A stretch of 64,000 nt of DNA from Chryseobacterium suipulveris (GTDB lineage Bacteria > Bacteroidota > Bacteroidia > Flavobacteriales > Weeksellaceae): positions 1,947,501-2,011,500 of the forward strand of contig NZ_CP094532.1 in NCBI RefSeq assembly GCF_022811685.1. Reading direction: 5' to 3'. Shown in pieces: positions 5,260 to 62,715 of this stretch. The notes beneath the pieces were generated by a model, which was not told the DNA's origin, made no database searches, and saw only the letters and a program-made list of their open reading frames with translations. Position 1 is the first letter of the stretch; each line of letters starts with the position of its first letter. The position numbers and the translations under genes were made by a program.

Positions 5260-5279
5260 AAAAGTCGTATTTTTGAACA

Positions 5280-6950: not shown

Positions 6951-6974
6951 AAAATCGAAATTCAAAAGCAAGCG

Positions 6975-45211: not shown

Positions 45212-45212
45212 T

Positions 45213-45824: not shown

Positions 45825-45831
45825 AATTATC

Positions 45832-45860
45832 TGTCACAAATTTAGTAAATATTAGTGACA
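45832..45860 (-). promoter_or_regulatory. abiE operator/promoter
   Basis: TGTCACAAAT (45832-45841) and ATTAGTGACA (45851-45860) form a 10-bp inverted repeat with one mismatch and a 9-bp spacer. A minus-strand TAAATTTG box (45837-45844) lies inside it. AbiEi homologues autoregulate through inverted repeats at this position. Binding here is inferred. Confidence 0.65.
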
Positions 45861-46037
45861 AAACATGAAGGTTATTTAGTGTAATTTACCATACAATTAA
45901 TCTAAAATGGAAAATCCAGGAAAAAGATTTCCCAAAGGATAAAGATGTAATGAACTCGCCTGACATAGCACTGAAAATAACAATCTATAAATGGTCATAA
46001 CCAATCATTTTTTTTTGATAGACTACAATAAATTCTA

Positions 46038-46664: not shown

Positions 46665-46692
46665 GTAATACTGCTTTCTAAAGAAAAATTTA

Positions 46693-47940
46693 TTACGGAC
46701 AATTCAAAAAAGCATCTACCGTTGAGTGAATTTTGTTTTGCCAATCAGTAACTTTCTGAATTGGTTCAATAAATATTAAACTACAGTTCTTTTCTGACAT
46801 TAAATCTTCCTCTTGACTGCTGACATAATTGCCACTTTTGATTGTTGTAGAATGTCCTGGATAAATCAAACCAGTTTTCGATCCATTGTAGTAGCGGTGG
46901 TAAACATACATTTGTCTTAAATCATTTGGGGAAGGATTGAAATCGCCTAAATTCTTCCATTTCGTATCTAAAATTGCCACCTCTTCCGTCACTTTATTCT
47001 TAATTATTATGTCCGCCTGCATTTTACTGTAATATCCATCTGATGGTTTCCAGAATTTTCGTGATTTTTGGGCTGAGACAGAACAGTTTTTTAATCTTCT
47101 TTTTAATGTAATAAAAACGAATTGCTCCCAAAGCACATTCATATTAAACATTAGGGCTATTACATCATTTCTGCCTTTGCTTATATCCGGATGCCAATTC
47201 AACAGGAGAAGCTGAGCTATTTTTACAGCAGTTTTATAATCTGCATTTTTTCTGTCGAATCTAATTCTCTCGAATGTAATTTCAGTAACCTTTATATCAT
47301 CCAACTCAGGAAAATTCAGAAATAATGAACCAATTCTACTTTGCAAAGCCACATTCGAATTGAGTTTAGAAATAAGTTTTAATCCCTTATACAGAATTTT
47401 TAGGATAAGGTGGTCATTACTGTAATGAGTATGTTTAGTGTAAAACCTTTCTTGATGTGAAAGATTATGACTGATATTTTTCGCAAAATGAATCTGACCT
47501 TTTAACGCTCTAATATTGCCTTCAGTATGGACATATTTTTTTATCAATCCTTTTTGCAACAGTCTTTCAAGCTCATTTACGAACAATTCAAAATACAAAT
47601 CCAAAATAGAATTTTTTCTTACTGACAATGTTGAGCTACCGCTTTGTTTTACTTCAAATCCCCAAATGGTTTGAATCATTCCGATCAGAATTGCTCTCCA
47701 TTCTTCTTCACCGTCTTTATCAGCTTTAGGTAAAACTTCAATTGAATATTTTCCGACCTGCAAAACACCAACATATTCATTAAACTGCACACCATCCCTG
47801 ATCAGAGAAAAGAACGGGCTATAGCTTCCGTAATATTTCTCTAACTGCAAATGAACATTTTTCGGCAATCGGTTTGCACCTGAATGAACGAAAATTTTCT
47901 CATGTTCAAAAACCGTTATTCTATTGATATCGCTAATCAA
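46693..47940 (-). CDS. mcrC: McrC-type restriction nuclease subunit
   Basis: The 415-aa protein fits McrC: an N-terminal domain that docks on the McrB ring (about 1-200), then a PD-(D/E)xK nuclease core with QADIIIKN and VAILDTKWK (catalytic Asp, Asp and Lys, about 325-350). With McrB it cleaves DNA carrying modified cytosines. Its start overlaps the 3' end of mcrB by 8 bp, so the pair is translationally coupled. Confidence 0.9.
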   Translation of the reverse strand: MISDINRITVFEHEKIFVHSGANRLPKNVHLQLEKYYGSYSPFFSLIRDGVQFNEYVGVLQVGKYSIEVLPKADKDGEEEWRAILIGMIQTIWGFEVKQSGSSTLSVRKNSILDLYFELFVNELERLLQKGLIKKYVHTEGNIRALKGQIHFAKNISHNLSHQERFYTKHTHYSNDHLILKILYKGLKLISKLNSNVALQSRIGSLFLNFPELDDIKVTEITFERIRFDRKNADYKTAVKIAQLLLLNWHPDISKGRNDVIALMFNMNVLWEQFVFITLKRRLKNCSVSAQKSRKFWKPSDGYYSKMQADIIIKNKVTEEVAILDTKWKNLGDFNPSPNDLRQMYVYHRYYNGSKTGLIYPGHSTTIKSGNYVSSQEEDLMSEKNCSLIFIEPIQKVTDWQNKIHSTVDAFLNCP

Positions 47941-50014
47941 TGTCTTGTTTCATTAACAGTTTAATTGCCTTCTCAAAATCCATTATTACCCGGTTACCTT
48001 TCCACATTATTTCATAATCTGGATTAATACGGTAATCCACTATTTCAAAACTTTCTTTTTCAGCATAGTTCTGAAAATCCGCATAATCGAAATCCGCAAA
48101 TTCGGATACTTCTTTGTCACTTCTAACAAATCCCTGTCCTAAAATTAATCCGATTTTTCCGTAATCACCAAAAAAATACTCCTGTAACAAAGGAATTATA
48201 TTTTTGTAGAATGACTCCAACAATGTTTCTTCATTTTTGTTTAGAAAATAAGCATGACCAATGCTGTGATCCCTGTCAATCAATTTTTCAATCCTATTAT
48301 TGATGGTGTGCATGATTCTGTACAATTCAAACCCATGAACAACATCCTGCAACCCCGCTAAATCATATTTTGGAGGCATTTCTTCAAATGAAAATCTTCG
48401 TCTCAATGCAGTATCAAGGGCTTCAACACTTCTATCTGCTGTATTCATTGTTCCAATAATGTAAAGATTGCCCGGAACACCAAATTTGGACTTACTATAC
48501 GGCAAAGTAACCTGCAGGGCTTCTGTATTTCCAGCTCTTTTATCTTCCTCAATCAAAGTTATTAATTCTCCAAATATCTGGGATACATTTCCTCTGTTAA
48601 TCTCATCAATAATCAAGACAAATAATGGCACACTTTCGACAGATGCGCTTTGATTGCTTTGATTGTTTTTTAGTTTGTTATTTATATAATTTAAAACTGC
48701 CCAATATGCCGTGGAATTGGAACCACCAATAGCTCCCCTGAATTCTTTATCAATATTTTTTACTGCAGACAAATCAGGTAATGCCAGATATAATTTCTTT
48801 ACGCGATTGTAGGATACAGTATAATCCCTGCTATTTGATTTAGAAGGTTGGACTTTTAGATTTCCGTTTGCTGTAACATCTAACATTTTCATACCCATTC
48901 CTGCGGTTTGTATTGGGAGGACAAGAACTTTATCTTTTGAAAGCATCGCTGTTGTTTCAGAAATTAGCTCTGCCCAAGCATCATCAAACCCATATTCGGC
49001 TGTTTGAGCTCCTGAGTCCGGTTTTGCTTCGGCTGCTTTCTGTGCGAGCTTCTTGAAAATACCGTCCTGTATTTCATACACAATACTGCGTTTTCCATCT
49101 TCATCTTCCTCTATTTCCGGTTTTATTCCTTCTATAAAATCTTCATAACTCATACTCTGGTGAAAGGTTGTAAAAACTATTTTACCTTCTTTCACCAATC
49201 GGTCGTATTCTTGCTTTACCGCTCTTCTTTCTTGTGAAAAATCAAAATCAGGTGATATGATTTGGATTGCTTTATTAATGCTATTGTACGTTTTACCAGT
49301 TCCGGGTGGTCCAAAAAGAATTTGATTCAGCGGTTGCTTTTCAATAATTCCCTCTTCAATTTCTTCTGGTTTTACATCCTCTTCTTCTTCCAGGTCTTCT
49401 TCAAGTTTTTCTAGCGGTTTGTATTTTTCGAAGCGCTCATACATTTTCTTAATCATCTGCTCCTGTTCATGCAGTGTGAAACGTCTTGCAACAAAATCCG
49501 GATACTTCTCTTTCATCTTGTCAATTGCAGATTCTACGATTGGAAAAATCTTTTCTAAAGTCGCACTCATATCATCTTTGAACTCATCAAATTCAGAGTA
49601 TTTTGCACCGGAATAAACTCCAAAGAATTCCATTTTATTAGTATCCGGTCCAATATAGACTAAAGGAAAAGTGTCTTTTACCTCTGCTTTAATGCTTCTT
49701 ATCAGTTCAAGTGCATATTCGTTTTGCTTATCATGCGGTTTCTTCGTTTGGTTAAACTGCACATAAAACTCAATCTTTTTAGGACGCATATCAATAACAA
49801 GATTGATGAGATCACCCGAAGAACCGGGATATGCAACAGGAATAAACCAAAAAGTAGTGGAAAAATATTTTGATTTTTCGGTACCAATGAAATAGTTCAG
49901 CTCCGCTCCTTTAGTTGCTTTCTGTCTGACTGAAAAGGTGAAATTTGGATCTGCTTCATTTTTACTTTTCAGATAATTAAAAAACTGTAGCTGAAGGTCT
50001 TTGTATTTGCTCAT
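47933..50014 (-). CDS. mcrB: McrB-type AAA+ GTPase
   Basis: The 693-aa protein has an N-terminal region (about 1-200) that should contain the modified-base reader but looks unlike the short domain of E. coli McrB. An acidic linker (EKLEEDLEEEEDVKPEEIEE, about 203-222) leads to the AAA+ motor: Walker A FGPPGTGKTY (about 237), Walker B LIIDEINRGNVSQIF (about 475), the GTP-sensing NTADRSVEALD (about 530) and arginine RRRFSF. McrB rings translocate DNA and activate McrC. Confidence 0.92.
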   Translation of the reverse strand: MSKYKDLQLQFFNYLKSKNEADPNFTFSVRQKATKGAELNYFIGTEKSKYFSTTFWFIPVAYPGSSGDLINLVIDMRPKKIEFYVQFNQTKKPHDKQNEYALELIRSIKAEVKDTFPLVYIGPDTNKMEFFGVYSGAKYSEFDEFKDDMSATLEKIFPIVESAIDKMKEKYPDFVARRFTLHEQEQMIKKMYERFEKYKPLEKLEEDLEEEEDVKPEEIEEGIIEKQPLNQILFGPPGTGKTYNSINKAIQIISPDFDFSQERRAVKQEYDRLVKEGKIVFTTFHQSMSYEDFIEGIKPEIEEDEDGKRSIVYEIQDGIFKKLAQKAAEAKPDSGAQTAEYGFDDAWAELISETTAMLSKDKVLVLPIQTAGMGMKMLDVTANGNLKVQPSKSNSRDYTVSYNRVKKLYLALPDLSAVKNIDKEFRGAIGGSNSTAYWAVLNYINNKLKNNQSNQSASVESVPLFVLIIDEINRGNVSQIFGELITLIEEDKRAGNTEALQVTLPYSKSKFGVPGNLYIIGTMNTADRSVEALDTALRRRFSFEEMPPKYDLAGLQDVVHGFELYRIMHTINNRIEKLIDRDHSIGHAYFLNKNEETLLESFYKNIIPLLQEYFFGDYGKIGLILGQGFVRSDKEVSEFADFDYADFQNYAEKESFEIVDYRINPDYEIMWKGNRVIMDFEKAIKLLMKQDID

Positions 50015-50325: not shown

Positions 50326-51261
50326 TTAAATGATTCCTAATTCAGTAAGTATATCTTTTTTCATTTTACTTAAAGGTCTTCTGTCAAAATTAGCTTCGTC
50401 AACATAAGTTCCAAAAGCTAACCTATAAATTTCTTCTCGATCTACCTTTCTATTCAGTATTTGGTTGTAAAGGATTTCTAAATATTTATCAGAATAAATG
50501 TCCTTCAATTTCTTAAGATCTTTGATTTCATCTTCATGAGCTTTATAAACTTCTTCTATTTTAAATGCTTCTATACTTTTTTCTGTTAACGGATTATTAG
50601 CGATTACCTTGAAGGAAAAGTTAATTAGATCTTTATAATCATAACTAAATCTGAAATCTAATTTCTCTATTTGAGGATTATTTAAATATGGATGAAAATG
50701 CTCCGAAATATTAAACTCTTTATTTCCCTTTATTCCACTATTACAAACATTACAACTGGGTATTAAATTAAAAAACGATACAGCAAAGAGTGGAAAATCA
50801 GATTGAGAGAACCAATGATCAAAAGTAGGCCTTGTTATTTGTTCATGATTAGTACCCAAAACGGTCTTAGTATACATACGATTACAATAAGGACATGTTG
50901 GAATGTCTAAATTTTTAGCTAAATCATAACGATTATAAAAAGAATAATTATCCCAGCTTTCATAATCACAGATCTTCCTAATAGAGTCTTTCTGTTTCTT
51001 AGATTTAAACAAATATTTAAGCGAGTCTAATTCTGCTGGATTCCCAATCAAAACCTTTCTTAAATTATCTTCATTGTTGAGAAAAGCCTTAACAACACTA
51101 TGGATACCATCGACATGTTTTACGAACGTAATGTTTGAAAATGGTTTGGTATCGGTAAACCATCTCCCATTTAATTTTCTTTTAATTATATAACGCCAAT
51201 ATTTATAATGTATCTCTTTTGCATACTCTATTTTGGCTAAACTGACATCAATATAATTCAT
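50326..51261 (-). CDS. HNH endonuclease of a Septu-like system
   Basis: The 311-aa protein has a zinc-bound HNH nuclease: CPYCNRMYT (first Cys pair, about 128), FDHWFSQSDFPLFAVSFFNL with the catalytic Asp-His (about 149-168), and SCNVCNSGIKGN with the second Cys pair and Asn (about 170-181). It overlaps the ATPase gene by 4 bp. A RecF-like ATPase plus HNH nuclease is the PtuA-PtuB arrangement of Septu, also found as a retron effector. No reverse transcriptase is nearby, so a stand-alone Septu-type system is likely. Confidence 0.78.
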   Translation of the reverse strand: MNYIDVSLAKIEYAKEIHYKYWRYIIKRKLNGRWFTDTKPFSNITFVKHVDGIHSVVKAFLNNEDNLRKVLIGNPAELDSLKYLFKSKKQKDSIRKICDYESWDNYSFYNRYDLAKNLDIPTCPYCNRMYTKTVLGTNHEQITRPTFDHWFSQSDFPLFAVSFFNLIPSCNVCNSGIKGNKEFNISEHFHPYLNNPQIEKLDFRFSYDYKDLINFSFKVIANNPLTEKSIEAFKIEEVYKAHEDEIKDLKKLKDIYSDKYLEILYNQILNRKVDREEIYRLAFGTYVDEANFDRRPLSKMKKDILTELGII

Positions 51262-53081
51262 AAATTCTCTAACTTGTTGTTGAGCAAATTAATTTCATTG
51301 CTTATTATTCTCTTTTGGAATTCGGAATCACCTTCGAGTTCGGAAATCATCTCTGATAACTTGATTTTCAAAATTCTTTCATCAATGATTTCAATAATTT
51401 TTTTATAAAAACTAAGTTTTTCATAATAATCTTCATTTCTCCTTTTTGTTTTCTTATTAACGTTTATCCAGGCAATAATTTCCTCTATTTTATTCTTTGC
51501 AAAATCTCCCATTAATCCGTCATGAATAAAGAAAGACTCTGCAAGCAATTCTGAAATATTTGCCCCAAAAGTATTCTTATTAAAATTCGTTGATAATTCT
51601 GTAAATCCATCTGAATTTTTATCAAGAAAAATAATATTATCCGCTGGCAAGTCTGACAAAGCTAATGGATCATGTGTAGTAAATATTATTTGAAGATTCT
51701 TATCTTGAAAAATTTCTGGAATAATTTCAATTAAAAGGTTAACATATTTTTTCTTCCATGTTGGGTGAAAAGCAATATCAGCTTCATCTAATAGTATAAT
51801 ATAATCGTTTATTTCGTTGAATTTATTTCTCCCTTGGTAATCAACATATATATTGTTTCCGATGTTAAAAGCGATTTGATTCAACTGCGAAAATAATTCA
51901 AACATTGTTTGTTCGCCAGTGCTTAATTGAATGTTCGTACTCAATTCTAAAATTGGATAATCTTCGTAAGTAAAATATTTTCTAAAGGAAAAAATAAAAT
52001 TTTGAAAAAGATCAAGAAACTCAATAGCATTCTCTCTTGGAATATAAAATTCTGTCCAATTTTTGTAATTTTCTTGTTTGTCAATAATACCAATCAAGGA
52101 TTCTGTAAAACTTTTTATTTCATCAACTGGTAACAAGATAGGATCTGAATTCGATGTCGGTTTTATATATGCATTGTCTAAAAACCAATAAAAAGCTTCT
52201 TTGTACGATTCTTGCTCAATCATTTCAGAAACATTTCCGTTTACATAACCTTCACTTAAATATTTATTACCAGAATAATCTAGTATTTGTTTGATTTTTA
52301 AAATCACACAATTAATTATTTCAGCTTTTAACCTAATTCTATATTTAAGGAGATTGAATTCATCATTTGTTCTAATTTCATCAACCTCTGTTAAATTAAG
52401 TCTGTCTAATTCTAATTGTTCAAGAGTTTGAACTTCTTTATTTTTTATATTATCAAGTTCTCTAAAAAATTGTAAAAAAGCCCTTGAAATATTCCAATCG
52501 TCATCTTTCAGTTTAAGTAATTTTACTTTAACAAAATTTAGATCAGGCAATCCTAATTCAATTAATCGATAATAAAGGGACTCTCTCTTATGCAGTTTGA
52601 ATAGATTTTTTAAAAATTCTGAATGATGAATTTCAAGCATTTCATTAAGCCCAACTTGATCATGTCTTAATTCCTCGCTGATCTGTGAATATTTAGATAT
52701 ATTTAAGACTGTATCTTTAATATTATTTTCTGGATCATAACTTAAAAAAGGTGTATAATATATTTTAAGATAGTTTGTTGTGGATACTTCTTTTCCATCG
52801 TTATCAATTCCATTAAGATCACTATCTCTAATGGTTTTCAATAAGGTAGTCTTTCCTGCACCATTTTTACCGACGATTGCAGAAACCAAATGAATTTTTC
52901 CAAACAGGTTTTCAATATAGTTTTCATTGATTTCAAGTGTTGCCGAATAATCATAAGGATCACTCTCATTATATTCAATTTGTGAAAAATATTGTCCGCC
53001 AAAATTCAAATTTATTTCGGTATGATTCTCTCCGAAAATGTATGGAAGGCTGTTTGGATAAATTGAAATTGAGGAAATCAT
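51258..53081 (-). CDS. RecF/ABC-type ATPase of a Septu-like system
   Basis: I place the start at 53081 (MISSISIYPNSLPYIFG); 17 further upstream codons look like leader. The 607-aa ATPase has Walker A IVGKNGAGKTTLLK (about 72-85), a long insertion (about 110-385) of helical character, the ABC signature LSTGEQTMFE (about 392), Walker B YIILLDEADIAFHP (about 435) and a switch His in FTTHDPLALSD (about 475). No TOPRIM nuclease is fused, so the cutting is done by the HNH partner. Strikingly AT-rich. Confidence 0.8.
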   Translation of the reverse strand: MISSISIYPNSLPYIFGENHTEINLNFGGQYFSQIEYNESDPYDYSATLEINENYIENLFGKIHLVSAIVGKNGAGKTTLLKTIRDSDLNGIDNDGKEVSTTNYLKIYYTPFLSYDPENNIKDTVLNISKYSQISEELRHDQVGLNEMLEIHHSEFLKNLFKLHKRESLYYRLIELGLPDLNFVKVKLLKLKDDDWNISRAFLQFFRELDNIKNKEVQTLEQLELDRLNLTEVDEIRTNDEFNLLKYRIRLKAEIINCVILKIKQILDYSGNKYLSEGYVNGNVSEMIEQESYKEAFYWFLDNAYIKPTSNSDPILLPVDEIKSFTESLIGIIDKQENYKNWTEFYIPRENAIEFLDLFQNFIFSFRKYFTYEDYPILELSTNIQLSTGEQTMFELFSQLNQIAFNIGNNIYVDYQGRNKFNEINDYIILLDEADIAFHPTWKKKYVNLLIEIIPEIFQDKNLQIIFTTHDPLALSDLPADNIIFLDKNSDGFTELSTNFNKNTFGANISELLAESFFIHDGLMGDFAKNKIEEIIAWINVNKKTKRRNEDYYEKLSFYKKIIEIIDERILKIKLSEMISELEGDSEFQKRIISNEINLLNNKLENL

Positions 53082-53158
53082 TATTTTTATTATTTGCAGC
53101 GTGAATTCGAAAATAAGAAAAACAAGCAACATTTTTAAGTTTTAGTTCAAGAATCGTG

Positions 53159-53172
53159 TAAATGATAATTTA
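53159..53172 (+). repeat. hsdS inversion site 1
   Basis: TAAATGATAATTTA, plus orientation. The last 12 bases are in-frame codons Asn-Asp-Asn-Leu opening silent cassette C1. Identical in all four sites. Confidence 0.85.
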
Positions 53173-53904
53173 GAAGCTCTGGCGAAAACCATTTACGATT
53201 ATTGGTTTGTTCAGTTCGATTTTCCTGATGAAAATGGAAAACCATACAAATCGTCTGAAGGAAAAATGGTTTATAATAAGGTTTTGAAAAGAGAGATTCC
53301 TGAAGGATGGGAGGTTAAGACAATTGGAGATTATTGCAAATCTACTGGTGGATTTGCCTTTAAATCCAGCTGGTGGACAGATCAAGGTTATCCTGTCATT
53401 AAAATTAAAGATATTCAAGAAAATTACAAAATCAATCTGGAGGATTTAGCGTATGTTAATTTAACAGATAAGCGTATTGATGATAAATTTAAAGCTAAAC
53501 CTGGTGACATCCTTATTGCAATGACTGGAGCAACCGTAGGAAAGTATGCTATGGTTCCTTTCACCGAAATGCCATTGTATGTTAATCAGCGAGTTGGTTA
53601 TTTTAATTTGGGTGATAAGCCAGAAGAAAACCTACCGTTTTTAATTAATTCCTTAAATCAAAGATACTTTAGAGAAGCGGTTTTTATGTTAGCAAAGGGA
53701 GCAGCACAGCCAAATATCAGTAATGAACAAATCAATAATATTCAATTAATACTTCCAAAAGCGGATATTATTAAATCATATAATAAAATATTTGAGTCTT
53801 ACTACTTAAAAAATCTGCTCAATCAGCAACAAAACCAACAACTTACGCAACTTCGAGACTGGCTTCTCCCAATGCTGATGAATGGTCAAGTTTCAGTGAA
53901 GTAA
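53161..53904 (+). CDS. Silent hsdS 3' cassette C1
   Basis: This 247-residue open segment has no start codon or promoter at its 5' end. It opens with NDNLEALAKTIYDYWFVQFD, the central conserved region of HsdS, then IPEGWEVKTIG and a DNA-recognition domain (about 55-215), and ends with the HsdS C-terminal helix QLTQLRDWLLPMLMNGQ. An internal ATG at 53266 would give only 212 aa. It is oriented against the hsdS half A at 54373, and inversion through sites 1 and 2 would fuse A to C1 as a 394-aa HsdS. Confidence 0.85.
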   Translation, partial: NDNLEALAKTIYDYWFVQFDFPDENGKPYKSSEGKMVYNKVLKREIPEGWEVKTIGDYCKSTGGFAFKSSWWTDQGYPVIKIKDIQENYKINLEDLAYVNLTDKRIDDKFKAKPGDILIAMTGATVGKYAMVPFTEMPLYVNQRVGYFNLGDKPEENLPFLINSLNQRYFREAVFMLAKGAAQPNISNEQINNIQLILPKADIIKSYNKIFESYYLKNLLNQQQNQQLTQLRDWLLPMLMNGQVSVK

Positions 53905-54373
53905 AAGTTTTTCTTTGTGGTAAATTATCATTTAGCTGGTTGTTTGCAGAAATTTTCTTGTCAATTTTCTCTAAAATATCTGAAATGAGTTTTTGTATCT
54001 TAATTTCTGGCAGTTGTAATTCGAGATCGTAATAACTGTTGAAAGTCATACTTGGAACGCCAGTTCCTGTATTTAGATTTTCCAAGTTAAGACCTTTTAA
54101 ATAGTAATACAAAAAATAGGGAGCAACTAATTCTTCGTTGATTTCAGTATAATAAAGAGTATCAACGGTCCAAAAAGGTTTGTTTGTATATTGTATGTTA
54201 TGCAATGACCCCTTTCTTGGAAGTAGAATACTTGGCTTATCATAAACATATTCATCAACATACCGCATTAATCCACCGCTACCATAAACAGGAATTTTTC
54301 CGTCAGCTAATGATTTGTGGTCTTTGCCGTTTTTTATTTTTAGCAATTGGCTAAGTTTATATTTTTTCATCAT
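53843..54373 (-). CDS. hsdS: hsdS half A (single recognition domain)
   Basis: The 176-aa product begins MMKKYKLSQLLKIKNGKDHK and contains one target-recognition domain (about 10-125) and a coiled coil up to ANNQLNDNL (residue 151). After that codon it leaves HsdS sequence and reads 25 residues antisense to the end of cassette C1. Its ATG overlaps the recombinase stop (TAATG), so it is translationally coupled to that gene. As it stands it is a half-size specificity subunit. Half-size HsdS proteins can dimerise in some type I systems. Confidence 0.85.
   Translation of the reverse strand: MMKKYKLSQLLKIKNGKDHKSLADGKIPVYGSGGLMRYVDEYVYDKPSILLPRKGSLHNIQYTNKPFWTVDTLYYTEINEELVAPYFLYYYLKGLNLENLNTGTGVPSMTFNSYYDLELQLPEIKIQKLISDILEKIDKKISANNQLNDNLPQRKTFTSLKLDHSSALGEASLEVA
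53921..53934 (-). repeat. hsdS inversion site 2
   Basis: TAAATGATAATTTA read on the minus strand. It lies at the Asn-Asp-Asn-Leu codons ending the HsdS part of half A, and is inverted relative to sites 1 and 3. Confidence 0.85.
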
Positions 54374-55365
54374 TAGCCAATAAATTTACGATGAGCAATT
54401 TTTACATTTCCCTGATTTACCATTGCGTAATGCAATGTGGTGTCAATCTTCATATGCCCAAGCAACTTTTGCACTTGTTCAATGGGCATTCCTTTATCAA
54501 TAGCTAATGTCGCAAGTGTTCTTCTGAATTTGTGGGGATGAACTTTCTCAATATTACATTTAATTCCGAGCTTTTTAAGCCGGGTTTCAATAGCACCAAT
54601 TGTAAGTCTGGTGTGTGGTTTTGCAAGTGATACAAAAAGTGCATTATTACTGTCAGCACGACTTTCAAGATATTTTTTGAGATGGATTTTGGTGCGAGCG
54701 TCAAAATAAACAATTCTTTGGCAATTTCCTTTTCCTAAAACAATACATTCTCGCTCATGGAAATCAATGTCGGTAATATTCAGTCTTACCAGTTCGCCAA
54801 CACGCATTCCTGTTGAACTGAGTAATTCTATCAATGCCAAATCCCTTATTTCTGTACAATTATCGCGGAGCGTTTCTATTTGCTCGTCAGACAAAATTTC
54901 CTTTACCTGTCTTCCGCTTTTTACTTTGTGAATCCTTCGTACAGGGCTTTTTACGATGTAATTTTCATCCTCAAGCCATGAGAAAAAAGAAGAAAATATC
55001 CTTCGTATATTATCAATGGTAACTTTGCTTGAATTTTTAAGTTCCTGATAATTTGCAAGATAGAATCTCAAATCATTGGTTGAAATCTCAACCACATTTT
55101 TCTTGATTTCATTGAATAGATGCCCAATAGTCGAAGTATAATATTTTAATGATTTTTCAGAACATCCTTCAACTTTTTTTGAAGAAATAAAAAGTGATAG
55201 AAGTTTTGGATTGTCGAGGATTTTGTTATCGTATTCAGGATGATAATTACTGATTGTTTTATTTTGAAGTATCGAGCAAAGTACCTGATTAAGAATTTCC
55301 ATTTGTTGTTCGTTGATAATCATTTGCATCGCATTCTTAATCTCGTTGATAAAATTGTTGTTCAT
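54373..55365 (-). CDS. Tyrosine recombinase of the hsdS inversion system
   Basis: The 330-aa recombinase lies between the two hsdS modules. It has a SAM-like core-binding domain (about 45-145) and a catalytic domain with Arg in SSTGMRVGEL (about 188), Lys in LGKGNCQRIV (about 213), HPHKFRRTLAT (about 278), LGHMKID and nucleophile Tyr in TLHYAMV (about 313). It is shorter than the element integrase at 41744 and XerC/D-like, as expected of Tsr-type enzymes that invert hsdS in Bacteroides. The gene itself would be flipped in a site 2-site 3 inversion. Confidence 0.88.
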   Translation of the reverse strand: MNNNFINEIKNAMQMIINEQQMEILNQVLCSILQNKTISNYHPEYDNKILDNPKLLSLFISSKKVEGCSEKSLKYYTSTIGHLFNEIKKNVVEISTNDLRFYLANYQELKNSSKVTIDNIRRIFSSFFSWLEDENYIVKSPVRRIHKVKSGRQVKEILSDEQIETLRDNCTEIRDLALIELLSSTGMRVGELVRLNITDIDFHERECIVLGKGNCQRIVYFDARTKIHLKKYLESRADSNNALFVSLAKPHTRLTIGAIETRLKKLGIKCNIEKVHPHKFRRTLATLAIDKGMPIEQVQKLLGHMKIDTTLHYAMVNQGNVKIAHRKFIG

Positions 55366-55448
55366 AAAGTTGGGTTAAAATCCCGCAAATTGCATGAACG
55401 CTTATAATATTTTGTCTGTTTTTGGATATAGTTATCAACAAAGATAGA

Positions 55449-55462
55449 TAAATGATAATTTA
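55449..55462 (+). repeat. hsdS inversion site 3
   Basis: TAAATGATAATTTA, plus orientation, at the start of cassette C2. It is preceded by AAAGATAGA, partly shared with site 4 on the opposite strand. Confidence 0.85.
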
Positions 55463-56122
55463 GAAGCCTTGGCAAAGACTATTTATGATTATTGGTTCGT
55501 CCAGTTCGATTTTCCCGATGAAAACGGAAAGCCTTACAAGTCTTCGGGTGGAAAAATGGTTTATAATAATGTTTTGAAAAGAGAAATTCCCGAAGGTTGG
55601 GAAGTTAACACAGTTGGTGAATTTTCAAATGTAAAAAAAGGAACCCTGATTACGGAAAAAAACGCAAAAACAAATGGTAGTGTAAAAGTCGTTTCAGCAG
55701 GGATTGGTTTTTCTTATTTCCACGATAAAAGTAATTTTCCGGCAAATACAATTACTGTCAGTGCTTCAGGAGCAAATGCGGGTTTTGTAAATTTTTGGAG
55801 AGAGCCAATTTTCGCATGCGATTGCACAACTATCAGAGGGGAGAATGATTATGCAACCTTTTATATTTTACAATTTTTAAAATCAGTGCAGGAGTTTATT
55901 TATTCGCAAGCGCATGGCTCAGCACAACCACATGTTTATCCAAAAGATATTGAGAATTTGGAAATTGTTTTGCCGACAAAAAAAATATTGGAGCAATTTG
56001 GAAAAGCCATTATTCAAATGAATGACAAAATAACAAATGACCAGCAACAAAACCAGCAACTTACGCAGCTTCGAGACTGGCTCCTTCCAATGCTGATGAA
56101 CGGACAGGTAACAGTGAAGTAA
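55451..56122 (+). CDS. Silent hsdS 3' cassette C2
   Basis: This 223-residue segment opens with the same NDNLEALAKTIYDYWFVQFD as C1 and keeps about 54 nearly identical residues, then carries a different recognition domain (TVGEFSNVKKGTLITEKNAK, about 57-190). It ends with QLTQLRDWLLPMLMNGQ. The shared parts differ mostly at synonymous positions. It lacks its own start and promoter; fusion to half B by inversion through sites 3 and 4 would give a 406-aa HsdS. Confidence 0.85.
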   Translation, partial: NDNLEALAKTIYDYWFVQFDFPDENGKPYKSSGGKMVYNNVLKREIPEGWEVNTVGEFSNVKKGTLITEKNAKTNGSVKVVSAGIGFSYFHDKSNFPANTITVSASGANAGFVNFWREPIFACDCTTIRGENDYATFYILQFLKSVQEFIYSQAHGSAQPHVYPKDIENLEIVLPTKKILEQFGKAIIQMNDKITNDQQQNQQLTQLRDWLLPMLMNGQVTVK

Positions 56123-56711
56123 AAGCAGAATTTGTCTTTTTCATTTGCGATAAATTATCATTTATCTTATTATTTACTTCAATTTTTTTCTCTAAAACTG
56201 ATAAAATAGAGCTGATTTTCTTTTGAGTAGAGAGGGCTGGCAAATGAAGTGGAAAAGCTTTAATAATATCAATTGGCAAAGTGCATCTTTGTCCACTACC
56301 ACCTGCATTGTTCTCAAAATATTCTTTTGCTTGCTTCGTTTTAAACCAATAATGAAGAAATCTACCGTCCAGTACATCTTCAAAAGGTGTAATTAATGAA
56401 AGATGATAGCCTAAAACAACATCGTCAAAATCTTGTGAAATAAAAGTTGAAATACCAATATCATCTCTTTTTTCACTATCCTTTGTTATTGCAACTTGTC
56501 CTTTCCTTAAAATAAACTTTTCAAATTCGTTTTCGTTGCACGAAGCAATCATAAAGTTTTCAGCTTTGTCCGCATCAATGAACGAATTTTTGTAAACATC
56601 GGTATAATTGCAGAGACGAACGGAAATTTCGTCTGCTTTCGTTTTCTTATCAACATTGCTTAATTTGACATCTGCAACTTCACCGAGTTTAACCGCTCTC
56701 CATCTATTCAT
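56061..56711 (-). CDS. hsdS: hsdS half B (single recognition domain)
   Basis: The 216-aa product begins MNRWRAVKLGEVADVKLSNV, a normal HsdS N-terminus, and has one recognition domain (about 15-150) and a coiled coil ending KINDNL (residue 187). The last 29 residues read antisense to the end of cassette C2. The antisense overlap is 62 bp, exactly as for half A and C1. It is the first hsdS part downstream of hsdR-hsdM and the likeliest to be expressed with them. Confidence 0.85.
   Translation of the reverse strand: MNRWRAVKLGEVADVKLSNVDKKTKADEISVRLCNYTDVYKNSFIDADKAENFMIASCNENEFEKFILRKGQVAITKDSEKRDDIGISTFISQDFDDVVLGYHLSLITPFEDVLDGRFLHYWFKTKQAKEYFENNAGGSGQRCTLPIDIIKAFPLHLPALSTQKKISSILSVLEKKIEVNNKINDNLSQMKKTNSAFTSLLPVRSSALEGASLEAA
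56151..56164 (-). repeat. hsdS inversion site 4
   Basis: TAAATGATAATTTA on the minus strand at the Asn-Asp-Asn-Leu codons of half B. It completes the alternating set of sites 1 to 4. Confidence 0.85.
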
Positions 56712-56814: not shown

Positions 56815-56881
56815 TTCTTTACCCTTGGTCTGGAACCTACAAAGGTCTTAAACGTTGAACCAGTTAATCAACGTTTTTTTT
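56815..56881 (+). ncRNA. Candidate small RNA, about 65 nt
   Basis: Downstream of the promoter at 56780-56809 there is room for about 65 nt before a terminator: AACGTTGA (56851-56858) pairs with TCAACGTT (56868-56875), followed by T7-8. A first hairpin (CCTTGGT with ACAAAGG, 56823-56845) precedes it. Both hairpins have 9-base loops, and these contain complementary CTGG and CCAG. No plausible peptide is encoded. The T run overlaps the stop codon of the convergent small gene. The start point is inferred. Confidence 0.5.
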
Positions 56882-57317
56882 ATTTTCGATAATCAGGACT
56901 TGCCAAAATCTTTTCAAGATTCTCGTCATTGTTTACTTCATAAGCCGTTACAAATCTCGCTTTCAAAGGATTAAAAATAATAATTACCACAATGTAATTA
57001 TTCTTTACCAATGCTACTCTTCTGCTGCTTTCATAACTTCCCGTTTTGCTGTTCCAGCCTTCCTTTAGTATGGCGTCGGGATCTTGCAAGGTGTCTTTTA
57101 TCCAAAAAATTTTTTCCAAACGGTTTAGCGACAGAATAGATTTGTCTTTCTTCCTCCTATTGTCACTTTCGAAAAAGCAATGATCAAACATTTGGTCAAA
57201 AAACTGAACCAAAATCCCATCAAATGTCATAATCTTTTTTTGACAGTATTCTGTCTTCCAAATCTCGCGCAGTTCTTCTTCAGAGAAATTCTGAGGTTTA
57301 ATTTTTTTGTATTTCAT
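56880..57317 (-). CDS. Small protein resembling barnase/ColicinE5/RelE-type nucleases
   Basis: The start is ATG at 57317, which overlaps the DUF3800 stop as TGATG, so the two are coupled. The 145-aa protein has ILVQFFDQMFDHCFFES (about 33-49), RLEKIFWIKDTLQDPDAILK (about 65-84), SRRVALVKNNYIVVIIIFNP (about 95-114) and a closing KARFVTAYEV. This strand pattern resembles the phage barnase-EndoU-ColicinE5/D-RelE-like nuclease group. I give that as a family resemblance only. It may be a nuclease effector or toxin tied to the type I system. Confidence 0.5.
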   Translation of the reverse strand: MKYKKIKPQNFSEEELREIWKTEYCQKKIMTFDGILVQFFDQMFDHCFFESDNRRKKDKSILSLNRLEKIFWIKDTLQDPDAILKEGWNSKTGSYESSRRVALVKNNYIVVIIIFNPLKARFVTAYEVNNDENLEKILASPDYRK

Positions 57318-58009
57318 CACCAACCGCCCTGCAAATTAATCTTAAACACATTAAATTTCTCTTCATTTTTTGGTGTATGCTGTATTGTATATCTTAAATG
57401 AGATTCTACATACTGAATCAGGGCATTTTTCGCCTCGCTTTGTGTTTTTTGGTTCACTTTCGCTGTCGCAATCCCAGTCAATAAATCAGCGAGCTGAATA
57501 CCCAAGCTTTGATTGGAAGGCAATCCCTGAACCAATCTCACATCGGAAAAGAAATTGGCTTTGTCCAGAAATCTTTCAAGTTCTTTTAGTCTGCCTTTAT
57601 TACGATTCTTTTTTAGGTCTAAATAGACATCATATAAGTTGAAATCATAAATCCATGTCTTAATCATCTGATAATAAAACTTGTAAAAACTCAATTCAGC
57701 ATCGCTATTATGAAACTTTATTAAATCCACTTTATCAGATTGTACAAGGATTACACGAAATCGGAGATATTTTGAATCAAAAAAATAATCGATAATTTCT
57801 TTGTAAAGCGGTAAATATTTTGGTGTCACCTTATTCCATTTCAGTTCTCCCTTTACACCGTATTTTCTTTTTATAGAGTTTACGTCTTCTTTAAACTTTG
57901 TCCTCATTTCCGATGGAAGCCAAACACCACCAATACCGATAAATGAATGTTCATCTTTTTTATTTAGTGCCTCAAGACAACTTTCGTCACAATAAATTTC
58001 GAAATTCAT
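57317..58009 (-). CDS. DUF3800 protein in the hsd operon
   Basis: The 230-aa protein has the DUF3800 hallmarks: an N-terminal EIYCDESC (about 4-11), GIGGVWLP (about 25), an acidic central strand and a C-terminal SLGIQLADLLTGIA (about 170-183). DUF3800 proteins have a predicted RNase H-like fold and unknown activity, and are often seen in defence neighbourhoods. It begins 2 bp after the hsdM stop and overlaps the next gene, so it is part of the type I operon. Confidence 0.82.
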   Translation of the reverse strand: MNFEIYCDESCLEALNKKDEHSFIGIGGVWLPSEMRTKFKEDVNSIKRKYGVKGELKWNKVTPKYLPLYKEIIDYFFDSKYLRFRVILVQSDKVDLIKFHNSDAELSFYKFYYQMIKTWIYDFNLYDVYLDLKKNRNKGRLKELERFLDKANFFSDVRLVQGLPSNQSLGIQLADLLTGIATAKVNQKTQSEAKNALIQYVESHLRYTIQHTPKNEEKFNVFKINLQGGW

Positions 58010-58011
58010 AT

Positions 58012-59646
58012 CTACTTATTGAATTTGATGTTCTGTAAATTTTTTTTAATCTCCAAATCCAACGCATTACCTTCCGCAAAGAGTTCGTTCAGTTTGGTTT
58101 CAAAACCATTCAGTTTTTCTGCGAATTCTTCGGCGGTAATTTCGATATACTCAATCTTTACTTCAAAATATTGTCCTGCGGAAAAACTGTAGTTTTTAGC
58201 TTTTATTTCTTCTACAGAAACCACAACGCTTAAATCTTCTACCGCTTCTTTTGCATGGAAAGTTTCTACAATTTTTCTTTCTTCTTCACGGGTAAGAACG
58301 GTACGCTGGTTTTTTCCGTCTTTAACAGTTTCGCCCAACTTACTGGCATCCATCAAAACAACTTGGTCTTTACCAGCTTCCTTGTCAATAAAAAGAACAG
58401 ATACATTGGTTCCTGTACTTGCGAAAATATTACTCGGCATACTTACGACACCGCGCAACCAACCTTTATCAATCAATCTCTCGCGGATTTTCTTTTCTAT
58501 GCCACTTTGCGCAGTAATAAATCCTGTAGGAACTACAATCGCCGCTTTTCCCTGATCATTCAGGCTGTACATAATGTGCTGAATAAAGAGAAGATAAATC
58601 GCCATAGATTCTTTCTTAGTCTTTGGCACATTGGGAATTCCCGCAAAAAAACGCTCTTTGAAACGGTCGGTATCCAAATCTTCCCTGAAATCTGAAAAAT
58701 CTAATTTAAACGGAGGATTTGAAACAATATAATCGAACTTATGTTTTTCCAGATAATAAGGTTCTGCTATAGTGTTGGTCTTGATTACATTGGGAATACT
58801 ATGCGTAAGGTTGTTCAAAATGAGGTTTAGACGCAACATCGTGCTCGATTTTTGCGAAATATCTTCAGAGTAAATTGTACAACGATCTTCGCCAATGTTG
58901 TGCGCCAAAGACATTAATAGCGAACCTGAGCCAACACTCGGATCGTAACACTTTACTTTTTTCACATCGCCTTCCACCAAAATATCTGCAATAATTCTGG
59001 AAACAGCATTTGGCGTATAATATTCGGCATATTTTCCACCAGAATCCGAGTTGTAATCTTTGATTAGGTATTCGAAAATATCTTTGAAGAAATCATACTT
59101 TTCCGTGAAATAATTTTCAAAACTTTCTTCAAAACTAAATTCAAATAATTTATTGATTAATGCTTTGCAGAATCCATCTCGTTGTGAAGAATCGGTAATG
59201 TAATTACTCAGCTCATCAAAAAGTTTGTCTTTCGCTCCTGAAAATGACTTAATGGAGAATACATCTGCATTCTCTATACTGATGTCTCGCAAAGTATCAT
59301 CAAAGGTTTTTGCAAAATCTTCGCTGTTTTGACTGTTGTACAGATGCGAAATGAGTTGATGAGGCTTCAATCGTGGCACATTTTCATCCAGCAAATCCAT
59401 TAATAAGTCGTAATGTTTCGCTTGGATTGCCTTTAGGTTTTCATAAAATGAATTGTTATCGCCGAGTTCAGGTTTTAGTTTCTTTACCTCAAAGCGGAAT
59501 TTGTCATTCAAGAATTTATATAAAAAAACTTGTGTAATAATTTTGAATTCGTTTCCATCGTTACCCAAACCATAGTTTGCACAAACACTTTTCAGGCTGT
59601 CGATTAGCTGTTTGGTTTTGGTAGTATATGTAATATCCTGTGTCAT
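58012..59646 (-). CDS. hsdM: Type I restriction-modification methyltransferase subunit HsdM
   Basis: The 544-aa protein has the N-terminal HsdM domain (about 5-150) and an N6-adenine methyltransferase core: motif X-like GGKYAEYYTP (about 202), SAM motif YDPSVGSGSLL (about 235) and the catalytic VSNPPFKLDF (about 310), followed by VVPTGFITAQSGIEKKIRER. It modifies adenines in the site chosen by HsdS. Its ATG abuts the hsdR stop with no gap. Confidence 0.93.
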   Translation of the reverse strand: MTQDITYTTKTKQLIDSLKSVCANYGLGNDGNEFKIITQVFLYKFLNDKFRFEVKKLKPELGDNNSFYENLKAIQAKHYDLLMDLLDENVPRLKPHQLISHLYNSQNSEDFAKTFDDTLRDISIENADVFSIKSFSGAKDKLFDELSNYITDSSQRDGFCKALINKLFEFSFEESFENYFTEKYDFFKDIFEYLIKDYNSDSGGKYAEYYTPNAVSRIIADILVEGDVKKVKCYDPSVGSGSLLMSLAHNIGEDRCTIYSEDISQKSSTMLRLNLILNNLTHSIPNVIKTNTIAEPYYLEKHKFDYIVSNPPFKLDFSDFREDLDTDRFKERFFAGIPNVPKTKKESMAIYLLFIQHIMYSLNDQGKAAIVVPTGFITAQSGIEKKIRERLIDKGWLRGVVSMPSNIFASTGTNVSVLFIDKEAGKDQVVLMDASKLGETVKDGKNQRTVLTREEERKIVETFHAKEAVEDLSVVVSVEEIKAKNYSFSAGQYFEVKIEYIEITAEEFAEKLNGFETKLNELFAEGNALDLEIKKNLQNIKFNK

Positions 59647-62600
59647 TTATCTATTTCCGTAAAGTTGAAAGTATTCCCTTCCAATTAAATTGCTAATATT
59701 TTGTCTGGTTGTTGCATCAATATCCAGTTTTTCTTTTACAACAAACTGTTCTGCAACCAATCTTACAAGGTATCTGTCGAACCAGGCTTCATTATCAATA
59801 ATATTTTCCTGTCCATCCAGTTTTTCTTCAATTTCCTGTCGCACTTGCATCAACGCTCGGTGCAATTGCATTTCTTTGATGCTGAGATTCCCTTTTTCCG
59901 TAAGGCGTTTATGAATACGCACATACTTGTCATCATTTTGGTATTTTGCCTTTAGCAGGCTATTTTTACGATTAAGTTCTTTTGCTTCGTCATAAATCTT
60001 ACGAAGCAACTGCATATTTTCTACCATGTCTTCCTGATTGGTTTCAGAAAGGTTTTTCTTTTTGAAAATTCTTTCGAGCTCTTCCTTCAGATTAATGAAG
60101 TGTGGATCTGCTGTGTCTATATTCTGCACCAAAGCTTCGCGTGTTTTCCTTAGTTGGTCTTTATATTCATCAGCAAGTTTAAGTTCCTCTTCTCCAACTT
60201 TTATGAATTGAAATACAATGTCTTCTAAAGCCGTGTTCAGCAAGTTTTGAGTTTCATTGCCGCTGTCAAGATTTTCGATCAGGTTCATGTTGTCCAAACG
60301 ATTCTGAGCTTCAATCAATAAACTGTTCAGAATTTGGAAATCAACAAGTTCGCCGAAACCCTCAAATCCATTAATTGCGATTAGATTTTTAAGTTCTTTT
60401 GCAGTTCGAAGAGCTTTTACTAACGCCAAAAGTTCCTTCTTATCGGTAATTTGCTCTATCTGTTGTGAGAAAATTTCGCGATTTTCCGTTTCATAGTGAA
60501 AAAGCGTTTCTTTAATTTCATTGATTTCTGCCCGTATTTCATCTTCCGATTTGAAGAGAAACGAATACATTTCCATTTCATCTCCCAACTGTTCCTGTAA
60601 TTCTTGGAAATACAGATGGTTTGTACGGTCAAAAGCTTTTGAAATATCCGCAAAATCTACCACATAACCATATTGATAGTTTTTGTAAGGCCTGTTTACT
60701 CGTGTTAAAGTTTGCAACAAATTATGATCCTGAATTACTCTTGCCAAATACAACTTTTTTAAGCGCTTTGCATCAAAACCTGTGAGCAACATATTGTAAA
60801 CAAAAAGCAAATCGATCTTTCCGCTTTTATATGCTTCAATAAGGTCTTTTCTTATTTGTTTATCATTTTCATCATGTAGAATTAGCGCAGCTGTAAGTTT
60901 TTCTTTTTTTCGTTTTCCATAAGGTTCTCTCTCATCTGCAACCATTGGCAGCTTATCTGCTTCAATTTCCTGTACTCCGTATTTTTCCTCAAAAAGTTGA
61001 AACAACATTTTCGCCTGTTTTGAAGAATCACAAACCACCATTCCTCCCAAAGTTTCATCTTGCCAATAATCTCTGAAAGAAGTCAGATCATCCGTAATAT
61101 AATCCAATAAACCTTGGGCGAAGCGACGGTCGGCATAAACATCTGACGCTTTTACATCACCTTTCAAAACTTTAATTTGCTCCATTACGGCTTTCATTTC
61201 CATTTTGAAAGTTCCTTCAATTTCCTCCCGAATTAACCGCAAAGTATATCCATCGGCAATTGACCTGTTGTAATAGTATTTATGAAAATAGTTACCAAAA
61301 AGTAATTTTGAATCATATTCTTTCGCAACTTCCCTCAGCAATGGTGTTCCAGTAAGAGCAATCTTAACAGCTTTCTTATCTGAATTAATAAGGTTTGCGA
61401 GATAGTTTCCTTTTGGATTGTAACTTCGGTGTGCCTCATCTAAAAAGAAAACTCGCTGTATATTAATGTCATAACCGATTGCTTCTGCAACAGTTGCGTC
61501 CTCACTAAATTTCTGAATATTTACAACCGTAATTTCAGACTGACCACTATCATTATGAATAGCGCCAACTACTTTTAAATCTGCAATAAACTCCTGACGT
61601 GAATTTACCTTATTTACCTTTAAACCACGTTTTATAAATTCATTTGAAGCCTGAATCAGCAAATCCAAACGGTCAACAATAAAATAAAATTTGGGAATTA
61701 TATTTTGCTTCTGATAATAGTCTGTAAGATGTTTTACATTATAATAAGCAAGTGCGGTTTTACCCGAACCTTGTGTATGCCAAATGATTCCTTTTGTTTT
61801 CCCTTCATCTAATTTTGAAGCTATTGCCATCGTTGCAAATACCTGCGGATAACGCATAATATGCTTTTGCAGTCCACTTTCTTCACGGACGTAAGCAATA
61901 GAATAACGCAACATAAAAGCAAAACGTTCACGGCTGAACAGAGAAGTTAGAATGCGGTTTGTCGGAGAATGCGGTTCTTTGTTAATCTTAAACTCAGGGC
62001 TATGCTTGATTACCAGTAAGTTATTATCTTTTAGAACATGAGTTTCCTGTTCATCAGAAATATCTTTCAATGGTTGCTTTACAGGATATTCAGGATCTTC
62101 CCTGAAATAATTGAAATGAAGATCTGAGTACGTAGAAGTTGCATAGAAAGCTCCAAAAACAGGTTCTACAATACCATCTTCGTAATTCATGTTGTTGGAA
62201 AACACCATTAACTGTGTGATGTTGGCAAACTTCCTGAAATGCTTTCTCTTAAACCGAGAGTTTATTCGGCTTCGTTCTGCTAAAACTCCTTCTTTATTAT
62301 GGGGTTTCTTGACTTCCACAAAAGCTAAAGGCAAGCCGTTTATCAGAATGGTAATATCTGGGCGAAATTCTTCATCTCCATTTTTGCAAGTCAGTTCAGT
62401 TGTGACATGAAAACTATTATTATTGAAATTCTTGAAATCGATAAGCTTTATTCCCGAAGTTGCAGTTAATCGCTGATAAAATTTTTCGCCGATGTCTTCA
62501 TAATCCAGTTCAAGGCTGATTTCATCAAGCAACCTCTTTAATTCTTCTACAGAAGCATTTGGATTGATTCTCGAAACACTCTCAATAAAAATTTCTTCAA

Positions 62601-62715
62601 AAATATTGGTATCTTCTCTTCTGATCTGTTTGGAAAACGGAATATATTTGTATCCCAACTTTAGCAGATGAAGCAAAGCAGGAATTTTTACGCGTGAATT
62701 TTCGTTGAAAGACAT
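59647..62715 (-). CDS. hsdR: Type I restriction endonuclease subunit HsdR
   Basis: The 1022-aa motor-nuclease has the N-terminal nuclease domain (EFRPDITILINGLPLAFVEVKK, Asp and Glu-x-Lys, about 117-138 in total), Walker A HTQGSGKTALAY (about 308), DEAH-box VFFLDEAHRSYNPKG (about 420), motif III ALTGTPLL (about 447) and the second RecA domain with LLTGFDAKRLKKLY and QTLTRVNRPYKNYQYGYVVDF (about 640-690). The C-terminal helical region contacts HsdM/S. It starts the operon; a 230-bp gap separates it from the Shedu-like gene upstream. Confidence 0.93.
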   Translation of the reverse strand: MSFNENSRVKIPALLHLLKLGYKYIPFSKQIRREDTNIFEEIFIESVSRINPNASVEELKRLLDEISLELDYEDIGEKFYQRLTATSGIKLIDFKNFNNNSFHVTTELTCKNGDEEFRPDITILINGLPLAFVEVKKPHNKEGVLAERSRINSRFKRKHFRKFANITQLMVFSNNMNYEDGIVEPVFGAFYATSTYSDLHFNYFREDPEYPVKQPLKDISDEQETHVLKDNNLLVIKHSPEFKINKEPHSPTNRILTSLFSRERFAFMLRYSIAYVREESGLQKHIMRYPQVFATMAIASKLDEGKTKGIIWHTQGSGKTALAYYNVKHLTDYYQKQNIIPKFYFIVDRLDLLIQASNEFIKRGLKVNKVNSRQEFIADLKVVGAIHNDSGQSEITVVNIQKFSEDATVAEAIGYDINIQRVFFLDEAHRSYNPKGNYLANLINSDKKAVKIALTGTPLLREVAKEYDSKLLFGNYFHKYYYNRSIADGYTLRLIREEIEGTFKMEMKAVMEQIKVLKGDVKASDVYADRRFAQGLLDYITDDLTSFRDYWQDETLGGMVVCDSSKQAKMLFQLFEEKYGVQEIEADKLPMVADEREPYGKRKKEKLTAALILHDENDKQIRKDLIEAYKSGKIDLLFVYNMLLTGFDAKRLKKLYLARVIQDHNLLQTLTRVNRPYKNYQYGYVVDFADISKAFDRTNHLYFQELQEQLGDEMEMYSFLFKSEDEIRAEINEIKETLFHYETENREIFSQQIEQITDKKELLALVKALRTAKELKNLIAINGFEGFGELVDFQILNSLLIEAQNRLDNMNLIENLDSGNETQNLLNTALEDIVFQFIKVGEEELKLADEYKDQLRKTREALVQNIDTADPHFINLKEELERIFKKKNLSETNQEDMVENMQLLRKIYDEAKELNRKNSLLKAKYQNDDKYVRIHKRLTEKGNLSIKEMQLHRALMQVRQEIEEKLDGQENIIDNEAWFDRYLVRLVAEQFVVKEKLDIDATTRQNISNLIGREYFQLYGNR

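What the first reader, a model, noticed from the sequence alone, without database searches (positions are those of the whole stretch)
53159..56164. Recombinase-driven hsdS shufflon: two 5' halves, two silent 3' cassettes, four identical 14-bp sites
Seen: TAAATGATAATTTA at 53159(+), 53921(-), 55449(+) and 56151(-), alternating in orientation, with a tyrosine recombinase gene in the centre. Each site lies on the codons Asn-Asp-Asn-Leu, in phase with two minus-strand hsdS halves (A: 151 residues to the site; B: 187) and two plus-strand 3' cassettes (C1: 243 after it; C2: 219). Predicted products: sites 1/2 give A-C1 (394 aa), 3/4 give B-C2 (406), 2/3 give A-C2 on the plus strand (370) and 1/4 give B-C1 (430). 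All are normal HsdS lengths. Known: Tsr-type recombinases invert hsdS in Bacteroides. The exact four-site layout, with the recombinase inside an invertible segment and coupled to half A (TAATG), is the new part. Cells could switch among four DNA specificities.
Basis: partly seen in the sequence, partly recalled or inferred. Interest (0 to 1): 0.95.

Follow-up and report, generated by a model that had tools for sequence, protein, structure and literature searches.

The report
Self-flipping restriction gene, caught off
In this bacterium a DNA-defence gene lies in four separate halves around a recombinase gene and four identical 14-base sites; the recombinase likely flips the halves into any of four targeting proteins, and the genome as assembled holds an arrangement in which none is complete.

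Summary
Four exact 14-bp sites alternate +-+- and are the only four in the 3.04 Mb chromosome. The predicted fusion lengths (394, 406, 370, 430 aa) are reproduced. Two of the four fusions exist elsewhere: one protein is letter-identical to B-C1, another is A-C1 with three substitutions. In one relative's assembly (G061) the redundant contig ends carry the locus in two states, with breakpoints at the sites. Three Lactococcus plasmids with matching outer flanks show three arrangements.

The claim that the layout is new fails: Streptococcus suis SsuCC20p (2016, 2023) has the same plan and xerD-dependent switching. Of 80 recombinase loci fetched, 39 have four or more such sites, in several phyla.

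Geometry explains it. With the recombinase opposite to hsdM, both 5' halves face one cassette and exactly one HsdS is complete (15 of 15 loci). With it parallel, none, one or two can be (3, 17 and 3 of 23). Verdict: a new member of a known kind, with a testable geometric rule.

The parts
53159..53172 (+). Recombination site 1, TAAATGATAATTTA; precedes cassette C1
   Evidence: exact match; only four in genome
53161..53904 (+). 3' cassette C1 (247 codons from the site, second TRD, no 5' half attached as assembled)
   Evidence: Methylase_S PF01420 E 4.5e-16
53921..53934 (-). Recombination site 2, at the end of 5' half A
   Evidence: exact match
53921..54373 (-). 5' half A of hsdS (151 codons to the site; reads on to 53843 as a 176-aa truncated product)
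   Evidence: PF01420 E 2.9e-18
54373..55365 (-). Tyrosine recombinase, 330 aa; Arg188, Lys212, His278-x-x-Arg281, His304 and Tyr313 read from the sequence as the likely catalytic set
   Evidence: PF00589 E 3.1e-36; NF040815 XerA type above cut-off; aligned to solved XerC-like/XerA chains 4a8e and 5hxy; motif positions
55439..55446 (-). TATCTTTG, a match to the Bacteroidota -7 promoter box (consensus recalled), between site 3 and the recombinase
   Evidence: weak, consensus match only
55449..55462 (+). Recombination site 3; precedes cassette C2, upstream of the recombinase
   Evidence: exact match
55451..56122 (+). 3' cassette C2 (223 codons from the site, second TRD, no 5' half attached as assembled)
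   Evidence: PF01420 E 3.3e-16
56151..56164 (-). Recombination site 4, at the end of 5' half B
   Evidence: exact match
56151..56711 (-). 5' half B of hsdS (187 codons to the site; reads on to 56061 as a 216-aa truncated product)
   Evidence: PF01420 E 2.3e-15
58012..59646 (-). hsdM, 544 aa, same strand as the recombinase
   Evidence: N6_Mtase PF02384 E 5.8e-67; MTase_I PDLC03033 E 5.6e-255
59647..62715 (-). hsdR, 1022 aa
   Evidence: HSDR_N and SWI2_SNF2
56880..58009 (-). Two accessory genes between hsdM and half B: DUF3800 protein (57317-58009) and a small protein (56880-57323), PADLOC candidate pair PDC-M04A/B
   Evidence: no relatives of either among the other loci scanned at E <= 1e-4

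Best explanation
[quoted passage not shown] Each site lies on the codons Asn-Asp-Asn-Leu, predicted to sit inside the long helix that joins the two recognition domains, so every exchange keeps the reading frame. Four HsdS proteins can form: A-C1, A-C2, B-C1 and B-C2. The sequence shows that in the assembled chromosome neither 5' half is joined to a cassette start, so HsdM and HsdR lack a complete HsdS. The system would then be off until a cassette flips (inferred). Sixteen arrangements are reachable. When the recombinase segment is parallel to hsdM, as here, each 5' half has its own cassette and none, one or two HsdS proteins can be complete. When it is opposite, both halves face one cassette and exactly one is complete. 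It works like S. suis SsuCC20p and shares its parts, layout and site type; it differs in the states seen.
For: Sites exact, alternating and unique in the genome. Recombinase, hsdM, hsdR and all four half-reading-frames are open. In-silico inversions give the four products and 16 states. Natural protein P0010 equals B-C1 letter for letter and P0001 equals A-C1 with 3 substitutions. Same-genus G006 (recombinase 71% identical) has the same four sites and the same parts; 8 of the 10 family genomes with the recombinase have four or more exact sites, and in the other two (G254, G269) the set seen is incomplete. G061: the first 20,430 and last 20,385 bases of the contig are the same sequence (0 mismatches, 40 small gaps over the two flanking alignments) but differ in cassette order and orientation, with breakpoints at the 14-bp sites. 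Lactococcus plasmids L122, L123 and L124: outer flanks 100% identical, different states, breakpoints at the sites. xerD dependence shown by others in S. suis (PMC10790761). AlphaFold2 model of P0010 (mean pLDDT 85) puts residues 184-187 in helix 160-200.
Against: No reads or methylation data for this genome, so switching here is not observed directly. B-C2 and A-C2 have no natural match among the 228 proteins listed in the two searches; those lists show the best 120 each. The source of P0001 and P0010 is not shown by the tool. S. suis reads and assemblies always had exactly one complete hsdS (PMC10790761), so coordination there is stricter than independent inversions predict; in my survey exactly-one states are also in excess, 17 of 23 parallel loci against half expected, one-sided p 0.017. 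Of the 80 loci fetched, 41 gave no set of four or more sites, some because contig ends cut them, some for reasons not resolved.
Confidence: 0.9

Rival explanations
1. As in S. suis, recombination is coordinated so that exactly one hsdS is always complete, and the zero-hsdS arrangement in this assembly is an assembler's mixture of reads from different states.
For: S. suis assemblies and long reads showed only one-complete states (PMC10790761). Exactly-one states are in excess in the survey, 17 of 23 parallel loci. G061's two copies and L122/L123 differ by a double exchange that keeps one cassette start joined to a 5' half.
Against: Zero-complete loci occur in independent records (window, L057, L089; also L131 by its annotation, which shows two short hsdS genes each facing a cassette) and two-complete loci in L021, L024, L041. 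In the parallel geometry one single cassette flip separates these from one-complete states.
Confidence: 0.2
2. General homologous recombination between the duplicated conserved parts of hsdS, not the recombinase, makes the rearrangements.
For: Cassette starts share 85% over 177 bp and cassette ends 89% over 84 bp. Larger repeats recombine without CreX in S. pneumoniae (as stated in PMC10790761).
Against: Oppositely oriented site pairs share only 14-17 identical bases. Breakpoints in G061 and Lactococcus fall at the 14-bp sites. Deleting xerD froze S. suis.
Confidence: 0.04
3. The locus is a relic: the recombinase is inactive and the R-M system has been lost by freezing without an hsdS.
For: No complete hsdS as assembled.
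Against: All parts are open and the sites perfect. The likely catalytic residues are present. The same halves are found joined elsewhere.
Confidence: 0.06

Closest known systems
SsuCC20p, phase-variable type I R-M system of Streptococcus suis (PMC10790761, PMC5198162)
   Same: hsdM, hsdR, four TRDs, xerD-type recombinase between two half-pairs, four 14-bp repeats (TAAATCATCATTTA/TAAATGATGATTTA against TAAATGATAATTTA here), four possible HsdS, second 5' half downstream of the recombinase. An S. suis locus (L025, isolate 10581, which the paper lists as a variant copy) came up with a 64% identical recombinase and four sites.
   Different: In S. suis exactly one hsdS was always complete and xerD was not found inverted. 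In the same paper five S. agalactiae strains had xerD inverted but had lost the repeats, and one S. agalactiae strain lacked a functional hsdS. The window keeps all four sites and has no complete hsdS; among 15 clean Bacteroidota loci the recombinase is opposite to hsdM in 13. The authors found SsuCC20p restricted to streptococci.
SpnIII / cod locus of Streptococcus pneumoniae (CreX/PsrA)
   Same: Tyrosine recombinase inside a type I locus, inversion of hsdS pieces at short repeats.
   Different: Three unlike repeat classes (15, 85 and 33 bp in PMC7394358; 15, 85 and 333 bp in PMC10790761) and one expressed hsdS; here four identical 14-bp sites and two translatable 5' halves.
Bacteroides fragilis NCTC 9343 hsdS shufflon BB (PMC3090145)
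   Same: Bacteroidota, tyrosine integrase next to hsdS, several inverted repeats, multiple specificities.
   Different: Four sets of repeats, one quoted at 38 bp, eight combinations, integrase beside the last hsdS rather than between two pairs (passages read).
Duplicated-hsdS systems of the REBASE survey (PMC7394358)
   Same: Inverting type I systems with duplicated hsdS parts.
   Different: The survey required perfect repeats of at least 20 bp and says shorter ones are missed; inverted pairs here share 14-17 bp.

Membership tests
SsuCC20p-type invertible type I R-M | hsdR, hsdM and four TRD pieces in one locus | tested here: met
SsuCC20p-type invertible type I R-M | Four identical 14-bp sites, alternating, flanking the two 3' cassettes | tested here: met
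   the core differs from that of S. suis, and cores differ among the other loci too (sets there were collected as identical copies)
SsuCC20p-type invertible type I R-M | Tyrosine recombinase between the two half-pairs, 5' half directly downstream of it | tested here: met
SsuCC20p-type invertible type I R-M | Reported behaviour, not a part of the locus: exactly one complete hsdS in every state seen in S. suis | tested here: not met
   window has none complete; other loci have none or two. I therefore say that it shares the layout and works like SsuCC20p, and file it only under the wider kind, recombinase-inverted type I R-M
SsuCC20p-type invertible type I R-M | Recombinase required for switching | not testable with these tools
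   needs a deletion strain; shown in S. suis only
Type I R-M system | HsdS with two TRDs joined by long conserved helices | tested here: met
   met by the joined product P0010: PDB relatives 1yf2 and 7vru, helices 160-200 and 384-423 in the model; not present in the assembled state
Tyrosine recombinase (XerA/Phage_integrase) | Catalytic domain with R-K-HxxR-H-Y | tested here: met
   residue roles recalled from the family
SpnIII/cod type | Several unlike repeat classes, one expressed hsdS | tested here: not met
   one repeat class of four identical copies
B. fragilis shufflon BB type | Four repeat sets with long repeats | tested here: not met
   longest identical stretch between opposite sites is 17 bp

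The most novel reading that the evidence does not exclude
Because the recombinase sits in its own invertible segment, flipping that segment changes the mode of the whole system: opposite to hsdM it is an obligate toggle that always yields one HsdS, parallel it becomes two independent switches that can yield none, one or two. The window would be a genome caught in a heritable restriction-null state that lets foreign DNA in and can revert.
Probability: 0.4. Interest if true: 0.7.

Novelty: new member of a known kind. Interest (0 to 1): 0.5.

Why it matters
It extends a layout studied in streptococci to Bacteroidota and, by record titles, to Clostridia, Treponema and others, with a short site that surveys requiring 20-bp repeats miss. 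The geometric rule (parallel recombinase: 0, 1 or 2 HsdS; opposite: always 1) makes the open question of the S. suis authors, whether the exchanges are coordinated, directly testable by counting states in long reads. A reversible state without HsdS would let a population open and close its restriction barrier.

Tried and rejected
Reading the layout as new: rejected after SsuCC20p was found. Treating 'always one complete hsdS' as a rule of the family: rejected by 6 of 23 parallel loci. First automatic labels of complete genes mis-scored some loci (for example L042); they were replaced by open-frame labels. Of 52 rows with four or more sites, 11 were left out for frame errors, five or six sites, cut ends or (L114) being the same record as L015, leaving 41; L048, L123 and L125 were then dropped as near-duplicates, leaving 38. 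G061's two copies are among the rows left out of the tally, for frame errors. The DUF3800/PDC-M04B genes as a part of the machine: not supported, no relatives in the other loci scanned; a DUF3800 gene next to hsdR in Lactococcus is annotated but did not match. A Bacteroidota -7 box upstream of the recombinase occurs in the window and in 14 other rows, some of them the same record, but not in L030, L033, L035, L042, L061 and L092, also Bacteroidota, so I draw no regulation from it. Methanosphaera plasmid versions were fetched to look for alternative states; no hsdS is annotated beside the recombinase. No fold search was run; PDB sequence hits sufficed.
Full report
OBSERVATION. The genome is a single 3,037,983-bp contig and holds no other copy of the 14-mer. 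Chance would give about 0.2 copies per genome, and the rest of the genus fits that: 7 scattered copies in 34 genomes without a recombinase match at E <= 1e-40. Opposite sites share 14 to 17 identical bases.

ANATOMY. On the minus strand run hsdR, hsdM, two accessory genes, half B, inverted cassette C2, recombinase, half A, inverted cassette C1. The 5' halves and 3' cassettes each carry one Methylase_S domain. As assembled, A ends after 176 aa and B after 216 aa, both in antisense of a cassette tail, and the cassettes have no 5' half. So no complete HsdS is encoded here: this follows from the sequence directly.

STATES. An exhaustive in-silico search of inversions between opposite sites gives 16 arrangements; the sites always stay +-+-. 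Eight have the recombinase parallel to hsdM: two with no complete hsdS, four with one, two with two. Eight have it opposite, and each of these has exactly one, because both 5' halves then flank a single cassette. Deletions between directly repeated sites were not enumerated.

NATURAL PRODUCTS. A search with A-C1 returned P0001 (394 aa; V43I, A143V, D299A against the prediction) and P0010 (430 aa), which equals B-C1 at every residue although B-C1 was never a query. The longest contig given is 6,193 bp for P0010 and 199,621 bp for P0001, neither of them the window's chromosome. The tool shows no source for either. Of four predicted fusions two were found; A-C2 and B-C2 were not, among the 228 proteins listed. 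P0036 joins a close relative of half A to another 3' half.

RELATIVES. In the family 10 of 320 genomes have the recombinase at E <= 1e-90. Seven of the ten, the window's included, have exactly four exact sites at the locus, one has six (G154), and two have incomplete sets: G254 at a contig edge with two, G269 with one.

SWITCHING SEEN. The G061 contig is redundant at its ends: its first 20,430 and last 20,385 bases align with no mismatch in the two flanking blocks, only small gaps. Inside, the two cassettes have changed places and orientation while the recombinase segment has not. Flanking blocks and swapped blocks end at the 14-bp sites, within about three bases. I read this as one locus sequenced in two states; I cannot exclude a true duplication at the contig ends. 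Lactococcus cremoris plasmid pJM2A, pUCCL627F (recorded as Lactococcus sp.) and pJM1A loci are 100% identical in the outer flanks. pJM2A and pUCCL627F have the cassettes swapped. pJM1A has the first cassette inverted in place, while its second cassette is a near-copy of the first.

BREADTH. Of 80 genome loci with a related recombinase, 39 have four or more sites of the form TAAA-n6-TTTA and 41 do not. The 80 came from a capped list, many are cut by contig ends, and MAG labels can be wrong. The central bases differ between loci (TAAATGATAATTTA, TAAACAATAATTTA, TAAACGATAATTTA, TAAATCATCATTTA and others), while identity within a locus was required by the search. In the 38 clean, de-duplicated loci the recombinase is opposite to hsdM in 13 of 15 Bacteroidota and 2 of 23 others (Fisher p 1.7e-6; phylum assigned by me from record titles). 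The 15 opposite loci have one complete hsdS each, as geometry demands. Of 23 parallel loci 3 have none (window, L057, L089), 17 have one, 3 have two (L021, L024, L041). The excess of one-complete loci (one-sided p 0.017) may mean selection or partial coordination; the loci are not fully independent.

PRIOR ART. S. suis SsuCC20p has the same plan with 14-bp repeats; deleting xerD freezes it; the hsdS downstream of xerD is transcribed and active; S. suis assemblies and reads always had one complete hsdS and no inverted xerD. In the same paper five S. agalactiae strains had xerD inverted but had lost the repeats, and one lacked a functional hsdS. [quoted passage not shown]). The 2016 paper gives a 17-nt conserved stretch holding the site and the inversions (PMC5198162, passages). 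A full-text search for six site words found only these two relevant papers; a search with Chryseobacterium terms listed 20 of 87 papers, none holding that genus name. I saw no paper describing a four-site locus of this plan outside streptococci, or the geometric rule, in the listings; only open-licence papers are held. The REBASE survey excluded repeats under 20 bp (PMC7394358, sections 6 and 10). B. fragilis shufflon BB differs in repeat sets (PMC3090145, passages).

MECHANISM. Shown: anatomy, uniqueness of sites, zero complete hsdS in the assembly, natural fusions, different states in relatives with breakpoints at sites. Inferred: that this recombinase acts on these sites here, that half A is translated from the recombinase transcript, that the assembled state is restriction-null, and that the truncated halves are inactive. 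In the model of P0010 the site codons lie inside helix 160-200, so a truncated half keeps only part of that helix.

VERDICT. Real, and by all its parts functional in outline; a new member of a known kind. The null state and the geometric rule are the parts worth testing.

Noticed in passing
50326-53132: A two-gene unit beside site 1, an AAA ATPase and an HNH-like protein, matches PADLOC candidate PDC-M62A/B and more weakly Septu PtuA/PtuB. Its start lies within about 30-80 bp of site 1, so cassette flips change what lies upstream of it.
   Followed up: partly
44207-50014: Other defence genes nearby: AbiE-type pair (44207-45824) and McrBC-type pair (46693-50014), so the switch sits among defence genes.
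   Followed up: partly
41744-42955: A phage-type integrase with arm-binding domain at the left of these genes may mark the border of an island.
   Followed up: no
L119 (G154), 5242-8673: Six exact sites instead of four, with an extra short piece near each cassette end, as if the array had grown.
   Followed up: no
S. suis isolates in PMC10790761: Two isolates lacking xerD, TRD2 and TRD3 fit a deletion between two directly repeated sites, which would freeze the locus (my inference from the text).
   Followed up: no
window 53159-56164 and relatives: Recombinase orientation relative to hsdM differs by phylum: opposite in 13 of 15 Bacteroidota, parallel in 21 of 23 others; the window is one of the two Bacteroidota exceptions.
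   Followed up: partly
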